This document shows, in pieces, positions 3,596-43,445 of a stretch of 49,018 nucleotides of DNA. Source of the DNA: a virus. Under the pieces are notes generated by a model. The model made no database searches and had not been told where the DNA came from. It saw only the letters and a list, made by a program, of their open reading frames with translations. Numbering within the stretch: the stretch's first letter is position 1; each line of letters starts with the position of its first letter. The position numbers and the translations under genes are program-made. The stretch covers positions 1 through 49,018 of the IMG/VR virus record IMGVR_UViG_3300046167_000757; one strand, written 5' to 3'.

Positions 3596-4021
3596 GTGTG
3601 GAAGCCCAGCATCATTGGTATCGAGAAAGGACACATCGAGATGGCCCTCGGGCCGTTTCTCGAGAAGCGTGTCCGCGAGCGTGGCTTTATGAGGCGTACT
3701 TTCAAGGACCTTAAGACAGGACGCAGCGATAAAGAAGCACGAGCACGAGCGATCCAGGGACGGATGCAACAGGGCATGGTGTTTTGCCCAGAGATGAAGA
3801 ATTTACTGGGCCCTTTGGTAGCAGAGTTATTGCGCTTCCCGAACGGCGTACACGACGATCAAGTCGATGCACTTGCTTGGCTCGGTCTGATGATGACCGA
3901 GTTTCGACGTACCAAGCGACCAGTTATACACGCCTCTTGGCGAGATCGCTGGTTCACTTGGAGGCAGAGCGTCACTAAAATCAGCTATGAGCGCATAACA
4001 TGGCATACAAATCAAGGATGA
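3596..4021 (+). CDS. terL: Terminase large subunit, C-terminal nuclease fragment (frameshifted)
   Basis: This frame continues the interrupted terminase: WKPSIIGIEKGHIEMALG and NGVHDDQVDALAW carry the remaining acidic residues of the nuclease fold. Positions 3557-3595 translate in another frame as KFDGFELVEQILDLYE, bridging the two parts. The open frame runs to 4021, but its end is probably wrong: near 3950 and 3978 other frames give LVHLEAERH then KSAMSA and a stop at 3996-3998, one base before the portal ATG. At least four small indels are needed to restore the gene. Sequence error is likelier than decay. Confidence 0.7.
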   Translation: MWKPSIIGIEKGHIEMALGPFLEKRVRERGFMRRTFKDLKTGRSDKEARARAIQGRMQQGMVFCPEMKNLLGPLVAELLRFPNGVHDDQVDALAWLGLMMTEFRRTKRPVIHASWRDRWFTWRQSVTKISYERITWHTNQG

Positions 4022-4319
4022 CGAGCGGCTGAGCAACAGGAAGTAGCTTCCAAGCAGTGGGATCGATATCCGAGCGACGGGATCAACGGCCACCTTGAAT
4101 ACATCGACATGGCAAGAAGTGCGATGACTTCTACCGAGGTGATCAGTGGGACCGAGATGATGCTGCGATCCTAGACAGCGAAGGGCGCCCCGCTCTGACC
4201 ATTAACACGATTCTCCCTACTGTTAATACGATTCTTGGTGAGCAGTCCACACGCAGAGCAGACGTACAGTTCAAACCGCGAAGCGCAGGCGAGAGGCCGT
4301 AGCTCAGACCCTGACCAAG
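4000..4319 (+). pseudogene. Portal protein, 5' part broken by frameshifts
   Basis: ATG at 4000 lies one base after the likely terminase stop. Across this segment, portal-like sequence appears in successive frames: SKQWDRYPSDGINGHLEYI, then CDDFYRGDQWDRDDAAIL, then LTINTILPTVNTILGEQST, ending VAQTLTKLYMQ, which joins the next open frame. Breaks fall near 4022, 4119 and 4292. The order and content match the N-terminal region of P22-type portal proteins, so this is one gene with the following two entries. Confidence 0.7.
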
Positions 4320-5387
4320 TTGTACATGCAAATAGCCGACAACAACAAGTTGGATTGGGTCGAGCAGCAGGTATTCAGCGACGGTTTGATCATGGATGGC
4401 CGTGGCTATTTTGATGTCCGTATGGACTTCAGCGATCACGTTGAAGGCGAGATCCGCATAACCGCCAAAGACCCGCTCGACATTCTGATCGACCCAGACG
4501 CCAAAGACTCAGACCCCAAGAGCTGGAACGAAGTCTTCGAGACTAAGTGGATGACGCTGGACGAGATCGAAGAGCTGTACGGCAAAAAGAAGGCCGAGGA
4601 TTTGCGCTTTATTGCTGAGAACGGATCTGGGTTCGGCAGAGATTCCATTGAGTACGAGGAGAATCGTTTCGGTGATACAGACTCTGCGGACGACTATTTC
4701 GGCGCAGGTGTCCCCGGCGAAGACGAGTACCGCAACGTCAGAGCGCTGCGGGTTATCGAGCGCCAGCACAAACGCATGCACCGTGTTGACTGCTACGTGG
4801 ACCCTAATACAGGCGACACGAGAGATGTACCAGAGAACTGGTCTGACGCTAAGGCCAAGAAGTTCGCTAAGCAGTACGGCCTAGACATTATTAGTAAGGT
4901 GAAGCGGCGAGTCAGGTGGACTGTGACATGCGACCACATCGTGCTGCATGATGACTGGAGCCCGTATAACGATCTCACCATCGTGCCTTTCTTCGCATAT
5001 TTCCGCAGAGGTCGTCCGTTCGGTGTTGTTCGTAACCTTCTCTCTCCACAAGAACAGTTGAACAAAATTGCTAGCCAAGAGCTGCACATAGTTAATACCA
5101 CAGCTAATAGTGGCTGGATGGTGGAAAGCGGATCGCTAGTTGGTATGACTGCTGATGACCTCGAGGAGCATGGTGCTGAGACGGGTCTAGTACTTGAATA
5201 TGCTCGAGGCACTAACCCCCCAGCAAAGATCCAGCCGATCAGATACCTACTGGGCTTGATCGTATCGGTCAAAAAGCCCAGTCCAATATTCAGAGTATCT
5301 CTGGTATCAACGACTCGATGCTCGGTACTGACAAGGCAGAGGTATCAGGTGTTGCTATTCAGGCGAAACAGAACCGTGGCGCGGTAA
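4320..5387 (+). CDS. Portal protein, central part (P22-like)
   Basis: This frame encodes the core of a P22-type portal, the dodecameric ring through which DNA enters the capsid. Recognisable segments are WVEQQVFSDGLIMDGRGYF, KDPLDILIDPDAKDSDPKSW, FFAYFRRGRPFGVVRNL and LSPQEQLNKIASQELHIV, the last typical of this family. The real reading leaves this frame near 5240, where TGLDRIGQKAQSNIQSISG and SMLGTDKAEVSGVAIQ occur in another phase; residues after that point here are artefactual. It lies between terminase and scaffold as expected. Confidence 0.8.
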   Translation: MYMQIADNNKLDWVEQQVFSDGLIMDGRGYFDVRMDFSDHVEGEIRITAKDPLDILIDPDAKDSDPKSWNEVFETKWMTLDEIEELYGKKKAEDLRFIAENGSGFGRDSIEYEENRFGDTDSADDYFGAGVPGEDEYRNVRALRVIERQHKRMHRVDCYVDPNTGDTRDVPENWSDAKAKKFAKQYGLDIISKVKRRVRWTVTCDHIVLHDDWSPYNDLTIVPFFAYFRRGRPFGVVRNLLSPQEQLNKIASQELHIVNTTANSGWMVESGSLVGMTADDLEEHGAETGLVLEYARGTNPPAKIQPIRYLLGLIVSVKKPSPIFRVSLVSTTRCSVLTRQRYQVLLFRRNRTVAR

Positions 5388-35775: not shown

Positions 35776-35798
35776 TGACGCAATTTTTGACGCAGTTC

Positions 35799-35848
35799 AT
35801 GCAGTAGCATGCAGTAATATGCAGTAGTTCAATGTGTAACATGCAGTA
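35799..35848 (+). repeat. Four helically phased ATGCAGTA repeats
   Basis: ATGCAGTA occurs at 35799, 35809, 35819 and 35841, spaced 10, 10 and 22 bp, that is on one face of the helix. They are candidate binding sites for the excisionase or for an integrase arm domain. Confidence 0.65.
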
Positions 35849-35890
35849 CTAAGTAGCGGTAAGTGGTGGTAAAACAACAACTTACGGCAA

Positions 35891-35910
35891 GATTCCGACC
35901 CGAGCCTCCA
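35891..35910 (+). other. attP core identical in form to a tRNA 3' end (probably tRNA-Cys)
   Basis: GATTCCGACCCGAGCCTCCA reads as a tRNA from the late T-loop: CCGAC is the 3' strand of the T stem, CCGAGCC the 3' acceptor strand, T the discriminator base, then CCA. A T at position 73 occurs in tRNA-Cys and tRNA-Gly; the GGCTCGG partner strand suits tRNA-Cys. The tRNA 5' part is absent, so this is an integration core, restoring the host gene on insertion. Confidence 0.7.
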
Positions 35911-35937
35911 TTCAAATTAGTGTTTGTAAGTCACTGT

Positions 35938-35966
35938 TTTACAGACATAAAAAATCTTGCTATCGT
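35938..35966 (+). promoter_or_regulatory. Candidate integrase promoter
   Basis: TTTACA (35938-35943), 17 bp, then TATCGT (35961-35966) with an extended TG two bases before. About 46 bp separate it from the integrase ATG. It lies inside the attP arm, allowing regulation by integrase or excisionase binding. Confidence 0.4.
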
Positions 35967-36012
35967 TTTCCTCGTGCAATGACGCACTTTTGACGCACTT
36001 CATGAGGAAGAC

Positions 36013-37059
36013 ATGGCATCAATCCGCAATCGGAACGGGCGGTTTTACGCCGAAGTTCGCAAGGCTGGGCATCCAGCGGTTAGCAGAACCTTTGACACTA
36101 AAACCGAAGCTCGTCAGTGGGCGAAGCGGACAGAAGCGGACATTGAGTCCGGCGCTTTGCTGGCACGCAAACAGAGATCTGAAAAGAAGACGACGTTCGG
36201 TCAGTTGATCGATCGCTACATTGAAGAAGTTCATCCTCTTAACAATTTTTGCGAGTCCAAACTTTCTACTTATCGATTGACGCAACGCGAAATCGGTCAC
36301 TACAAGCTGCATGAGATTACAGTAGAGAACGTGCTAGCTTACGGGCGGCAGCGCAGGCTTGGTACAGACGACAAGAAGGGTGTAGCACGAAGCACGCTTA
36401 ATACTCAGCTTCAATATATGGCGGAGCTCGTCGAGTTTGCTCGCATATCATGGGGCATGCCTTTTGAAACAAACCCCGTGAGAGACGCGCGCTACGCTCT
36501 CGCAAAGATGAAGTTGGTGGGTCCTAGTCGCAAGCGTGCACGTAGGCTCGCCGCTGGTGAGTACGAAAAGCTCATGGAAGCAGCCAAAGGGCACTGGATT
36601 TCACACTTCATTGTTATTGCCGTTCACAATGCTATGCGTCTTGCCGAGATTCATCGGCAGACGTGGGAAGACGTGGACTTTGAGAATCGCACGCTTACCA
36701 TTCGTGATCGTAAAGATCCGCAAGAGAAAGAAGGCAACGATGAAACAATCCCCATGCTCCATGAGACATGGACCCTGCTTCATGGTCTATGGTTGTGCAG
36801 CAAGCAGCGCGGAAGAGTTTTCTGCCAGGTTGCTACTGCGGGCGCTGTGTCAGATAAGTTTGCGGATGTAGCGGAGCTGGCGGGTTTTGGGGATTTGCAC
36901 TTTCACGATCTTCGGCACGAAGCGTGTAGTCGTTTGTTTGAACAAAAACTAACGATAGAACAAGTAGCGCTGGTGTCCGGCCATAAATCTTGGGACACAC
37001 TTAAACGCTACACTCAACTAAAGCCTGGGCAAGTTCTTGCTGCTATAGAGGACAGTTAG
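36013..37059 (+). CDS. int: Tyrosine recombinase integrase
   Basis: A 348-residue phage integrase. N-terminal arm-binding domain (MASIRNRNGRFYAEVRKAG), core-binding domain (residues about 60-165), and catalytic domain with R209 (NAMRLAEI), K234 (RDRKDP), H298-R301 (HDLRHEA), H324 (SGHKSW) and nucleophile Y333 (KRYTQL). All the expected catalytic residues are present, so it should be active. GAGGAAG lies about 3-9 bases before the ATG. It integrates and, with excisionase, removes the phage at the tRNA site. Its 3' end overlaps the opposite excisionase gene by 17 bp. Confidence 0.92.
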   Translation: MASIRNRNGRFYAEVRKAGHPAVSRTFDTKTEARQWAKRTEADIESGALLARKQRSEKKTTFGQLIDRYIEEVHPLNNFCESKLSTYRLTQREIGHYKLHEITVENVLAYGRQRRLGTDDKKGVARSTLNTQLQYMAELVEFARISWGMPFETNPVRDARYALAKMKLVGPSRKRARRLAAGEYEKLMEAAKGHWISHFIVIAVHNAMRLAEIHRQTWEDVDFENRTLTIRDRKDPQEKEGNDETIPMLHETWTLLHGLWLCSKQRGRVFCQVATAGAVSDKFADVAELAGFGDLHFHDLRHEACSRLFEQKLTIEQVALVSGHKSWDTLKRYTQLKPGQVLAAIEDS

Positions 37060-37252
37060 TCATTTTGGACTCTAAAAAAGCTGCGACTTCTGGGGTAGGG
37101 AACAGGTATTTCTTCCCGTGTTTTATGTGTGGCAGATCGAGTTTGCCCCGGTTTATTTGACTGTAGACCGATCTAGTTTCTACTTTTAACAGACTGGCTA
37201 TTTCTGGTAGGTCCATAAAAGGACCATACTTGGTTACTAGCAGCTCTTCCAT
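37043..37252 (-). CDS. xis: Excisionase-like helix-turn-helix protein
   Basis: 69 residues with a winged helix-turn-helix of the AlpA/MerR type: MDLPEIASLLKVETRSVYS then GKLDLPHIKHGKKYLFPTP. Such small proteins bend DNA at attP and control direction of recombination. GAGGAG stands 10 bases before the ATG. It is the last gene of the leftward operon and lies tail to tail with the integrase, so early transcription produces excisionase and also runs antisense into int. Confidence 0.7.
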   Translation of the reverse strand: MEELLVTKYGPFMDLPEIASLLKVETRSVYSQINRGKLDLPHIKHGKKYLFPTPEVAAFLESKMTNCPL

Positions 37253-37773: not shown

Positions 37774-38361
37774 TTAATTAATAATGTAGGTGAGTAGTGG
37801 CAGCAGCTTGGCTTCTAGTTCGTTGTTAGGTGGGCATTCGCTGATTTTTACTGCTTCAAGCGGGTCGCTATTTTTACGTTTGATGATATAAAATTCTGGT
37901 ACGCGACCGGGCGTTAGCCTGGGAGTTTTTAGTTTGAACATATTTGAGCACAGCGTCATTTGGCCTTTGAAGCCTATGGGGCGCAGGTCTTTTTCTAATC
38001 TAATAGCGCAGATTGCTTTGTAGTTTTCTTCAGCTACGGTTGCGACTATTCGTCTTCTATACGTAACTTCTGAGTAGTTGGCTGGTGTCTTGGGGTGAAT
38101 GTAAAGAACGGGGACTTTAAAACGGTCAGCTTCTATTGGGTTAAAGTTGGGGTCAATTTCGTGTGGGTCAACTTCAAGGAAGTTTGCTAGCTTCGCTATA
38201 GCTTCGCAGTTTAGCTCCGTTATGTTGTTTAAGTATTGACTAAACGCGCCTTGCGTCCACCCTAGTTTCTCTGCAGCCTGGGCTTGTGTTATTTCTAAGT
38301 CAAACTTTTTACTTTCCCAAATCCTTCGGAGATTTATTACCGCTTTTGGCAGGGTTCCCAT
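37774..38361 (-). CDS. Phage repressor, Cro/CI-type HTH
   Basis: 195 residues. Residues about 19-66 form an XRE helix-turn-helix (LEITQAQAAEKLGWTQGAF, SQYLNNITELNCEAIAKLA). The C-terminal 125 residues are not like the S24/LexA peptidase: no Ser or Lys catalytic motif is visible, though VPVLYIHPKT and RIVATVAEEN suggest a beta-rich dimerisation domain. AGGAGG lies 9 bases before the ATG. It is a good candidate to bind the ATTAG-N5-CTAAT sites. Being in the leftward operon, it may act as an early regulator instead. Confidence 0.75.
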   Translation of the reverse strand: MGTLPKAVINLRRIWESKKFDLEITQAQAAEKLGWTQGAFSQYLNNITELNCEAIAKLANFLEVDPHEIDPNFNPIEADRFKVPVLYIHPKTPANYSEVTYRRRIVATVAEENYKAICAIRLEKDLRPIGFKGQMTLCSNMFKLKTPRLTPGRVPEFYIIKRKNSDPLEAVKISECPPNNELEAKLLPLLTYIIN

Positions 38362-42614: not shown

Positions 42615-43445
42615 TTAGTTACATGTAACTATAACTTGACCTTGGGCGTTTGCTGTTGCTACGCAACCTTTCTGTTCAGTTGCCATTATGTCTTTCCATA
42701 CTAGATTGCTAGCAGCTGAGTAATTAAGCCAATTGGAGGTGTTTGCGACCAACCCATTGATCCCAGCAATACCTACGTTTCCTGTAGAGTTAAGACCCGC
42801 AGTGCCCAGGCTAACCGCAGAGTTAAGACCGGCAGTGCCCAGGCTAACCGCAGAGTTAAGACCGGCGGTAGCAATGGATGTATTAGCGTCAAAACCTGCC
42901 TTGCCAAGATCCGTCAAGCTAGTCATGCCTGTAGTACCGAGTGCGACCATGCCATTAACGAACGGCGTGTAGTCCACATTGCCCATCGCAGTCATACCCG
43001 CCGTAGCAACGTCACCAGTGATCTGGTTAGATGAAACGAATGAGCCGTATAACGCCTGCTGGTTAGCTGACTCTGCAGAAATACGTGCAAGATCAACCTG
43101 AGAGTTGTATTTTGCCATTGTCTTAGTGGAATCAGTCTGCATCCACATCATTCCAAGGTTACTTATAGGCGCAGCTAATATTGATGCCCACTGAAAAGCC
43201 TGTGACTGTTGTGGTATTGGCGTAATAGTGGGTGTTTGTGTAAGTGCAAGTGCCATAACTGCAGCGCTGGCTGCTTGCCCGTCACCAGCAGAGGCTATTG
43301 CTGATAAGGCGTCAAACTTAGCTTGTGAAGCAGCAGCATTTGCCTGGGCAGCAGCTTCTACTGCTTGATAATACTCGGTAGTGCTTGACGCACATCCAGA
43401 TATTAGTAGCGTTGCTGCAATTCCAGCTAATACTTTTCGGTTCAT
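42615..43445 (-). CDS. Outer membrane lipoprotein with tandem repeats
   Basis: 276 residues. The signal MNRKVLAGIAATLLISGCAS has a lipobox (LISGC, C18) with Ala at +2, favouring the outer membrane. Ala/Gln-rich helices follow (residues 25-70), then a beta/Gly-rich part with repeated AGLNSAVSLGT units encoded by a 33-bp tandem repeat (42786-42873). GGAGG precedes the ATG. It has its own terminator. Phage lipoproteins expressed early or in lysogens often block superinfection by binding receptor or tail tip; here that is inference. Confidence 0.75.
   Translation of the reverse strand: MNRKVLAGIAATLLISGCASSTTEYYQAVEAAAQANAAASQAKFDALSAIASAGDGQAASAAVMALALTQTPTITPIPQQSQAFQWASILAAPISNLGMMWMQTDSTKTMAKYNSQVDLARISAESANQQALYGSFVSSNQITGDVATAGMTAMGNVDYTPFVNGMVALGTTGMTSLTDLGKAGFDANTSIATAGLNSAVSLGTAGLNSAVSLGTAGLNSTGNVGIAGINGLVANTSNWLNYSAASNLVWKDIMATEQKGCVATANAQGQVIVTCN
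42786..42873 (-). repeat. 33-bp tandem repeat in lipoprotein gene
   Basis: Two full 33-bp units differing by one base (42786-42818, 42819-42851) and a partial third to 42873. They encode the AGLNSAVSLGT repeats, and copy number could change by slippage or recombination. Confidence 0.85.

What the first reader, a model, noticed from the sequence alone, without database searches (positions are those of the whole stretch)
35891..35910. attP core equals the 3' end of a tRNA, likely tRNA-Cys
The 20-bp core reads as tRNA positions from the late T-loop to CCA with T73 and acceptor strand CCGAGCC. Integrases commonly use tRNA 3' ends and restore the gene. It predicts the host attachment site and helps identify the host.
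Basis: partly seen in the sequence, partly recalled or inferred. Interest (0 to 1): 0.72.

Follow-up and report, generated by a model that had tools for sequence, protein, structure and literature searches.

The report
Phage attachment site copying tRNA-Cys end
This virus carries a 20-letter copy of the end of a bacterial tRNA-Cys gene next to its integrase gene, so that it can insert there without breaking the tRNA; this names its likely hosts (marine Halieaceae bacteria), and its relatives show the integrase's two DNA-recognition parts being swapped independently in evolution.

Summary
The finding is right. GATTCCGACCCGAGCCTCCA (35891-35910) is the 3' end of tRNA-Cys(GCA), nt 57-76. Of 89 exact copies in 84 loci of public bacterial genomes, 79 lie in intact tRNA-Cys genes and 10 are tRNA-Cys 3' ends cut by contig ends or displaced. 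Most named carriers are Halieaceae (OM60/NOR5), and 83 of 140 genomes in that family carry the 20-mer. Ten related viral contigs keep the same core about 100 bp before an 89-97% identical integrase gene. A Luminiphilus MAG shows the predicted attL: chromosome, whole tRNA-Cys, phage arm, integrase.

Around the core is a full lambda-type attP: paired integrase arm sites (TGACGCA) at 35776, 35788, 35980 and 35991, and probable excisionase repeats (ATGCAGTA x4). In relatives with the same core and nearly the same integrase, all four arm sites change together (TGACGCA, TGGCACA or GGTACA), at fixed positions, with integrase codons 1-29. Across the wider family, arm sequence follows the N-terminal domain and target tRNA follows the rest of the protein.

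A tRNA attP is ordinary. The domain-plus-site exchange is a clean, testable case of something previously only hinted at. Not shown: attR, exact crossover, or any activity.

The parts
35891..35910 (+). attP core, identical to tRNA-Cys(GCA) nt 57-76 (T-loop to CCA)
   Evidence: Exact match to 79 annotated tRNA-Cys genes; invariant in 11 attP sites; junction in L095
35776..35782 (+). putative arm-type integrase site, left arm, outer (TGACGCA)
   Evidence: Same offset (-115) in all 11 attP; the sequence changes together with integrase codons 1-29
35788..35794 (+). putative arm-type integrase site, left arm, inner (TGACGCA)
   Evidence: Same offset (-103) in all 11 attP
35980..35986 (+). putative arm-type integrase site, right arm, inner (TGACGCA)
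   Evidence: Same offset (+89) in all 11 attP, and in the attL of L095
35991..35997 (+). putative arm-type integrase site, right arm, outer (TGACGCA)
   Evidence: Same offset (+100) in all 11 attP, and in the attL of L095; 11-bp pair spacing is typical of the integrase family
35799..35806 (+). putative excisionase (Xis) site X1, ATGCAGTA
   Evidence: Direct repeats at 10-bp steps; a different repeat (ATGTCTA type) in phages with a different xis
35809..35816 (+). putative Xis site X2, ATGCAGTA
35819..35826 (+). putative Xis site X3, ATGCAGTA
35841..35848 (+). putative Xis site X4, ATGCAGTA
35882..35886 (+). TTACG block invariant in all 11 attP but absent from the tRNA; possible core-type integrase contact
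   Evidence: invariant columns of A1; role inferred
35926..35931 (+). GTAAGT block invariant in all 11 attP
   Evidence: invariant columns of A1; role unknown
36013..37059 (+). tyrosine integrase, 348 aa: N-terminal arm-binding domain (three strands 3-27, helix 30-46), core-binding and catalytic domains; R209, K239, H298, R301, H324, Y333
   Evidence: Pfam PF00589 1.3e-21; PHROG integrase 9.6e-49; invariant residues; AlphaFold model; lambda Int and Tn1549 Int among top PDB folds
37043..37252 (-). putative excisionase (xis), 69 aa, HTH_17; convergent with int and overlapping it by 17 bp
   Evidence: Pfam HTH_17 2.7e-9; PHROG excisionase/regulator 1.2e-6
37774..38361 (-). probable phage repressor (HTH_3)

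Best explanation
35776-36012 is the attP site of a temperate tailed phage of Halieaceae (OM60/NOR5 clade; the only junction seen is in Luminiphilus). Integrase bound to the paired arm sites on both sides brings the core to the identical 20 bp at the 3' end of the host tRNA-Cys(GCA) gene and recombines the two. The chromosome then carries tRNA-Cys 5' part + core (a whole tRNA gene) followed by the phage right arm and int (attL), with the displaced 20-bp tRNA end at the far side of the prophage (attR). The ATGCAGTA repeats are most likely where Xis binds to drive excision. Status of each step. Shown by sequence: core identity, position, conservation across 11 phages, attL junction, arm-site positions and their co-variation. 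Inferred: DNA binding by Int and Xis, the recombination reaction, excision. Two DNA-recognition functions of the integrase have evolved separately: the N-terminal domain with the arm sites, and the remainder with the tRNA target.
For: (1) Core = tRNA-Cys 3' end: 79 exact matches in annotated tRNA-Cys genes; 83/140 genomes of the host family contain it, reversed control 0. (2) All 10 viral contigs with the 20-mer have it 102-103 bp before an integrase 89-97% identical, with phage DNA on both sides. (3) attL in L095: whole tRNA-Cys, then TGACGCA arm sites at +89/+100, then int at 92% identity; the chromosomal genes upstream are also upstream of tRNA-Cys in up to 8 other family genomes. (4) Arm sites sit at -115, -103, +89, +100 in all 11 attP, but the 7-mer is TGACGCA in 8, TGGCACA in 1 and AGGTACA/GGGTACA in 2, matching three integrase N-termini. 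L098 vs L096: 39 differences in codons 1-29 against 13 in the other 951 bases (Fisher 3e-35), while the X-site block between is identical. (5) Family-wide: 50 of 94 distinct integrases have an exact 7-mer repeat at 11-bp spacing 5' of int, at most 6 at any other spacing. Arm similarity follows the N-domain given the C-part (partial Mantel r 0.40, P 0.001); same-tRNA targeting follows the C-part given the N-domain (r 0.49, P 0.001) and not the reverse (r -0.10).
Against: No attR or complete prophage was found; the L095 contig ends inside int and its genome holds one copy of the core. L095 is a MAG contig. No binding or recombination data exist. The X-site/xis correspondence rests on few lineages, and both could simply belong to the same backbone. 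The Mantel tests use related sequences and an automatic pair finder. attP lacks the first three bases of the T-loop, so a plain 7-bp T-loop crossover as proposed for Ms6 would meet mismatches.
Confidence: 0.93

Rival explanations
1. The 20-mer is a chance match or a remnant, and the true attP lies elsewhere in the window.
For: No attR was found, and no excision has been observed.
Against: Unique, never seen in shuffles; exactly tRNA nt 57-76; invariant next to int in 11 phages while flanking bases vary; attL in L095; no other collected tRNA shares more than 15 nt with the window.
Confidence: 0.02
2. The TGACGCA pairs are operators for a repressor of int (autoregulation), not arm-type sites needed for recombination.
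For: The right-hand pair lies 15-33 bp before the int start codon; a weak promoter-like site lies at 35938-35966 (not above chance).
Against: Matching pairs at fixed positions on both sides of the core, next to the tail gene as well as int; the 7-mer changes together with the integrase N-terminal domain, which is the arm-binding domain in known integrases. The two roles are not exclusive.
Confidence: 0.1
3. The phage infects a non-Halieaceae host that happens to share this tRNA-Cys end (for example Motiliproteus, or the bog or 'Rickettsiales' MAGs that also carry it).
For: A few exact copies are outside named Halieaceae (L030, L034, L035, L043, L050).
Against: Most named carriers are Halieaceae, and the only junction is in Luminiphilus.
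Confidence: 0.07
4. The arm-site differences between phages are gradual coevolution by point mutation, not exchange of a module.
For: Subcluster K1 mycobacteriophages show small stepwise differences of that kind (PMC3203893).
Against: L098/L096: 24 of 29 N-terminal codons differ, 10 of them synonymously, against 1.4% differences in the rest of the gene; sharp borders at codon 29 and at about -99.
Confidence: 0.1

Closest known systems
Mycobacteriophage Ms6 attP (tRNA-Ala, T-loop 'class II' site; PMC1762012)
   Same: Core equals the 3' end of a tRNA from the T-loop; tyrosine integrase beside it; the tRNA gene is regenerated
   Different: Ms6 shares 26 bases including the whole 7-bp T-loop, where strand exchange is proposed. 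Here identity starts inside the T-loop (nt 57) and the three bases before it vary freely (CAA, TAA, TCA, TCT), so fully matched exchange must lie at or beyond nt 57
Phage lambda integrase/attP
   Same: N-terminal arm-binding domain, core-binding and catalytic domains with R-K-H-R-H-Y; arm sites on both sides of the core; adjacent xis. Lambda Int is among the top PDB matches
   Different: About 21% identical; lambda attB is not a tRNA; no IHF consensus found in this attP
Subcluster K1 and Pixie/Tweety mycobacteriophages (PMC3203893)
   Same: Paired arm sites flanking a tmRNA or tRNA core; arm sites differ between phages sharing attB, linked to integrase N-terminal residues
   Different: There the K1 differences are single bases and two residues, and Tweety/Pixie integrases are only 44% identical. 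Here a whole 29-codon domain and all four sites differ between integrases otherwise 99% identical in DNA
Phage 186 Apl / RDF binding sites (PMC7498355)
   Same: Direct repeats one helical turn apart inside attP
   Different: Different protein (Apl is an outlier RDF); binding here is predicted only

Membership tests
tRNA-targeted phage attP site | Core identical to the 3' end of a host tRNA gene | tested here: met
   20/20 to tRNA-Cys(GCA) nt 57-76
tRNA-targeted phage attP site | Adjacent tyrosine integrase gene | tested here: met
   int starts 102 bp downstream
tRNA-targeted phage attP site | Junction with host DNA that regenerates the tRNA (attL) | tested here: met
   L095, in a relative with 92% integrase identity
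tRNA-targeted phage attP site | Second junction (attR) with the displaced tRNA end | tested here: inconclusive
   Not found; the genome of L095 has one core copy and the contig ends inside int
Arm-binding-domain tyrosine recombinases (phage integrases) | Catalytic R-K-H-R-H and tyrosine nucleophile | tested here: met
   R209, K239, H298, R301, H324, Y333 invariant in 18 aligned integrases
Arm-binding-domain tyrosine recombinases (phage integrases) | N-terminal three-strand plus helix arm-binding domain | tested here: met
   Model: strands 3-7, 10-15, 23-27, helix 30-46, pLDDT about 84 for residues 1-40; Pfam Int_N in 11 of 27 family members, only a weak Arm-DNA-bind_4 match for the window protein
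Arm-binding-domain tyrosine recombinases (phage integrases) | Arm sites bound by the N-domain | not testable with these tools
   Co-variation supports it; binding not measured
T-loop (class II) tRNA integrases | Crossover inside the 7-bp T-loop, as proposed for Ms6 | tested here: inconclusive
   Identity begins at nt 57 (Cys) or 57/58 (Ser relatives); the first three T-loop bases are not shared
Excisionase (RDF) with attP sites | Small HTH protein beside int, and direct repeats at one helical turn in attP | tested here: met
   HTH_17 protein 37043-37252; ATGCAGTA at 10-bp steps; binding untested

The most novel reading that the evidence does not exclude
In this integrase family the roughly 29-residue arm-binding segment and its 7-bp sites form an exchangeable unit that moves by recombination between phages independently of tRNA target choice, and its specificity can be read from a few residues. 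Example: acidic residue 14 goes with CG at unit positions 4-5 (TGACGCA, TGGCGGA, TTACGCC), Gln14 mostly with A at position 5, Lys14 with TGGGACA. The acidic-14 rule is post hoc: 5/5 against 1/17 sequence clusters, P 2e-4. A second sample held no acidic-14 members, so it could not test that rule; it did repeat Lys14 with TGGGACA.
Probability: 0.35. Interest if true: 0.6.

Novelty: new member of a known kind. Interest (0 to 1): 0.45.

Why it matters
It gives a host assignment with a junction behind it for a group of uncultured marine temperate phages; the paper searches made here turned up no described phage of Halieaceae. It also gives a near-isogenic natural experiment (same core, almost the same integrase, three arm specificities) for testing how integrase N-domains read DNA and whether arm specificity can be swapped as a unit, which would matter for designing orthogonal integration tools.

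Tried and rejected
Megablast of the region against the phage collection: no match. Protein search there: only relatives under 60% identity. L018 and L052, whose bases after CCA resemble the phage arm, were checked as possible prophages and hold ordinary chromosomal genes. L063/L070 share the tRNA-Cys site but carry a 30% identical integrase and belong to another element. No IHF consensus in attP; my tRNA-tail regex in that call was wrong and was replaced. Placing the 7-bp overlap: CGG-N7-CCG matches T-stem/T-loop symmetry but the overlap bases differ between attP and attB, so left open. An out-of-sample test of the residue-14 rule yielded no acidic-14 examples. Residue 20 (H/Y) was considered as a specificity determinant and rejected, because both occur with TGACGCA.

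Full report
What was checked. The 20-mer GATTCCGACCCGAGCCTCCA lies at 35891-35910 on the + strand. It is unique in the window even with three mismatches, and shuffles never produce it. The window is a 49,018-base virus record; ARAGORN finds no tRNA in it, so this is a fragment only.

It is a tRNA-Cys end. A scan of 84,980 bacterial and archaeal species genomes gave 84 loci with the exact 20-mer. Of 89 copies, 79 are the 3' end of an ARAGORN-called tRNA-Cys(GCA). The other 10 are tRNA-Cys genes cut by a contig end or displaced 3' fragments, probably left by other elements. The record titles are mostly Halieaceae (Luminiphilus, Haliea, Halioglobus, Parahaliea, Pseudohalioglobus), with a few outsiders (Motiliproteus, two bog MAGs, one MAG labelled Rickettsiales). 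In the family of the Luminiphilus MAG, 83 of 140 genomes have the 20-mer and none has the reversed control.

It is the attP core. It sits 102 bp before a tyrosine integrase gene (36013-37059). All ten viral contigs that contain the 20-mer hold it at that place beside an integrase 89-97% identical, with phage DNA on both sides: the DUF4376 tail-protein gene on the left, int, xis and repressor on the right. The contig of L095 (Luminiphilus MAG, JAQWUD010000033.1) reads chromosome, whole tRNA-Cys, phage right arm with TGACGCA at +89 and +100, then int at 92% identity until the contig ends. Genes upstream of this tRNA are also upstream of tRNA-Cys in up to eight other genomes of the family. That is the predicted attL. 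No attR was found. Four other MAG contigs stop 0-4 bases after this tRNA's CCA (L019, L026, L033, L075), as expected where integrated and empty copies mix in an assembly; this is only suggestive.

Anatomy of attP. The intergenic stretch 35776-36012 is filled by recognisable blocks. TGACGCA occurs twice on the left (35776, 35788) and twice on the right (35980, 35991). ATGCAGTA occurs four times (35799, 35809, 35819, 35841), the first three exactly 10 bp apart. TTACG (35882-35886) and GTAAGT (35926-35931) are invariant in all 11 attP sites. Direct repeats one helical turn apart are what RDF/Xis proteins bind (PMC7498355), and a 69-aa HTH_17 protein at 37043-37252 is the likely Xis.

Arm sites follow the integrase N-domain. 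In all 11 attP the arm sites lie at -115, -103, +89 and +100 from the core start. Their sequence is TGACGCA in eight phages, TGGCACA in L098 (same contig as L007) and AGGTACA/GGGTACA in L102 and L108. The integrase N-termini fall into the same three classes while the rest of the protein is nearly the same. In L098 versus L096, int codons 30-346 differ at 13 of 951 bases and the X-site block (-98 to -27) is identical, yet codons 1-29 differ at 39 of 87 bases (Fisher 3e-35), with 10 synonymous and 14 non-synonymous codons, and the right arm and everything left of -99 differ too. This looks like import of a divergent segment on each side of the core, not point mutation. The AlphaFold model gives the N-terminus the expected arm-binding fold (strands 3-7, 10-15, 23-27, helix 30-46), and lambda Int and Tn1549 Int are among the best PDB matches.

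The pattern is family-wide. Among 94 distinct integrase N-termini from viral contigs, phages and genomes, 50 have an exact 7-mer direct repeat spaced 11 bp within 75 bp 5' of int; no other spacing exceeds 6, and shuffles give 3.65 over all spacings together. Arm similarity follows N-domain identity when the C-part is held constant (r 0.40, P 0.001, n 46). The reverse is weak (r 0.12, P 0.009), and 0.05 without the close family. Sharing the same target tRNA follows the C-part (r 0.49, P 0.001) and not the N-domain (r -0.10). Targets in the family include tRNA-Cys, Ser, Met, Val, Arg, Pro, Lys and Phe. In the free viral contigs the shared block starts at tRNA nt 57 (Cys) or 57/58 (Ser, one at 56), so the T-loop's first bases are not carried by attP. 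This bears on the unsettled crossover position of T-loop integrases (PMC1762012): fully matched exchange must be at or beyond nt 57 here.

Exploratory lead. With arms aligned, the unit consensus is TGnn(A/G)CA. An acidic residue 14 goes with CG at unit positions 4-5 in 5 of 5 clusters against 1 of 17 others. This was seen first and tested on the same data. A further sample held no acidic-14 members, so it gave no real test, but it repeated Lys14 with TGGGACA.

What is known. tRNA attP sites, arm-binding integrases and RDF repeats are textbook. Covariation of arm sites with N-terminal residues was noted in small form for Cluster K mycobacteriophages (PMC3203893). The arm-binding domain's role in mobile-element integrases is discussed in PMC8138268. 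So this is a new member of a known kind, with an unusually clean case of domain-plus-site exchange.

Noticed in passing
L063/L070 (JANSYN010000003.1), L027/L044 (JAUIMF010000001.1), L049, L057: The same tRNA-Cys gene carries other integrated elements: a whole tRNA-Cys and, 4-9 kb away on the same contig in the first two cases, a displaced tRNA-Cys end whose identity reaches back to the anticodon loop. L063 has a different integrase (30% identical). tRNA-Cys looks like an integration hot spot in this family.
   Followed up: partly
L020, L023, L090: A second copy of the tRNA-Cys 3' end lies about 80 bp downstream of the tRNA, preceded by a similar GCGCG...CCGGCC...CATC or CGTC segment in three genomes: perhaps a scar of a past element, or a tiny repeated unit.
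   Followed up: no
L089 (Parahaliea mediterranea TN14-10), 3618-5354: Two tRNA-Cys 3' ends bracket about 1.7 kb: a possible mini-element or remnant.
   Followed up: no
tRNA-Cys of the loci (T-arm GCCGG TTCGATT CCGAC): All 77 tRNA-Cys genes read have a C-A mismatch at T-stem position 50:64; A64 lies within the shared core. Whether a phage-borne core spread this is unknown.
   Followed up: no
window 42763-42869: Three 33-bp-spaced imperfect tandem repeats inside an open reading frame on the - strand.
   Followed up: no
window 35938-35966: Weak promoter-like site (TTTACA-17-TATCGT) between the core and the right-hand arm sites; would let Int or Xis binding regulate int, as for intS of KplE1. Not above the chance count.
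   Followed up: no
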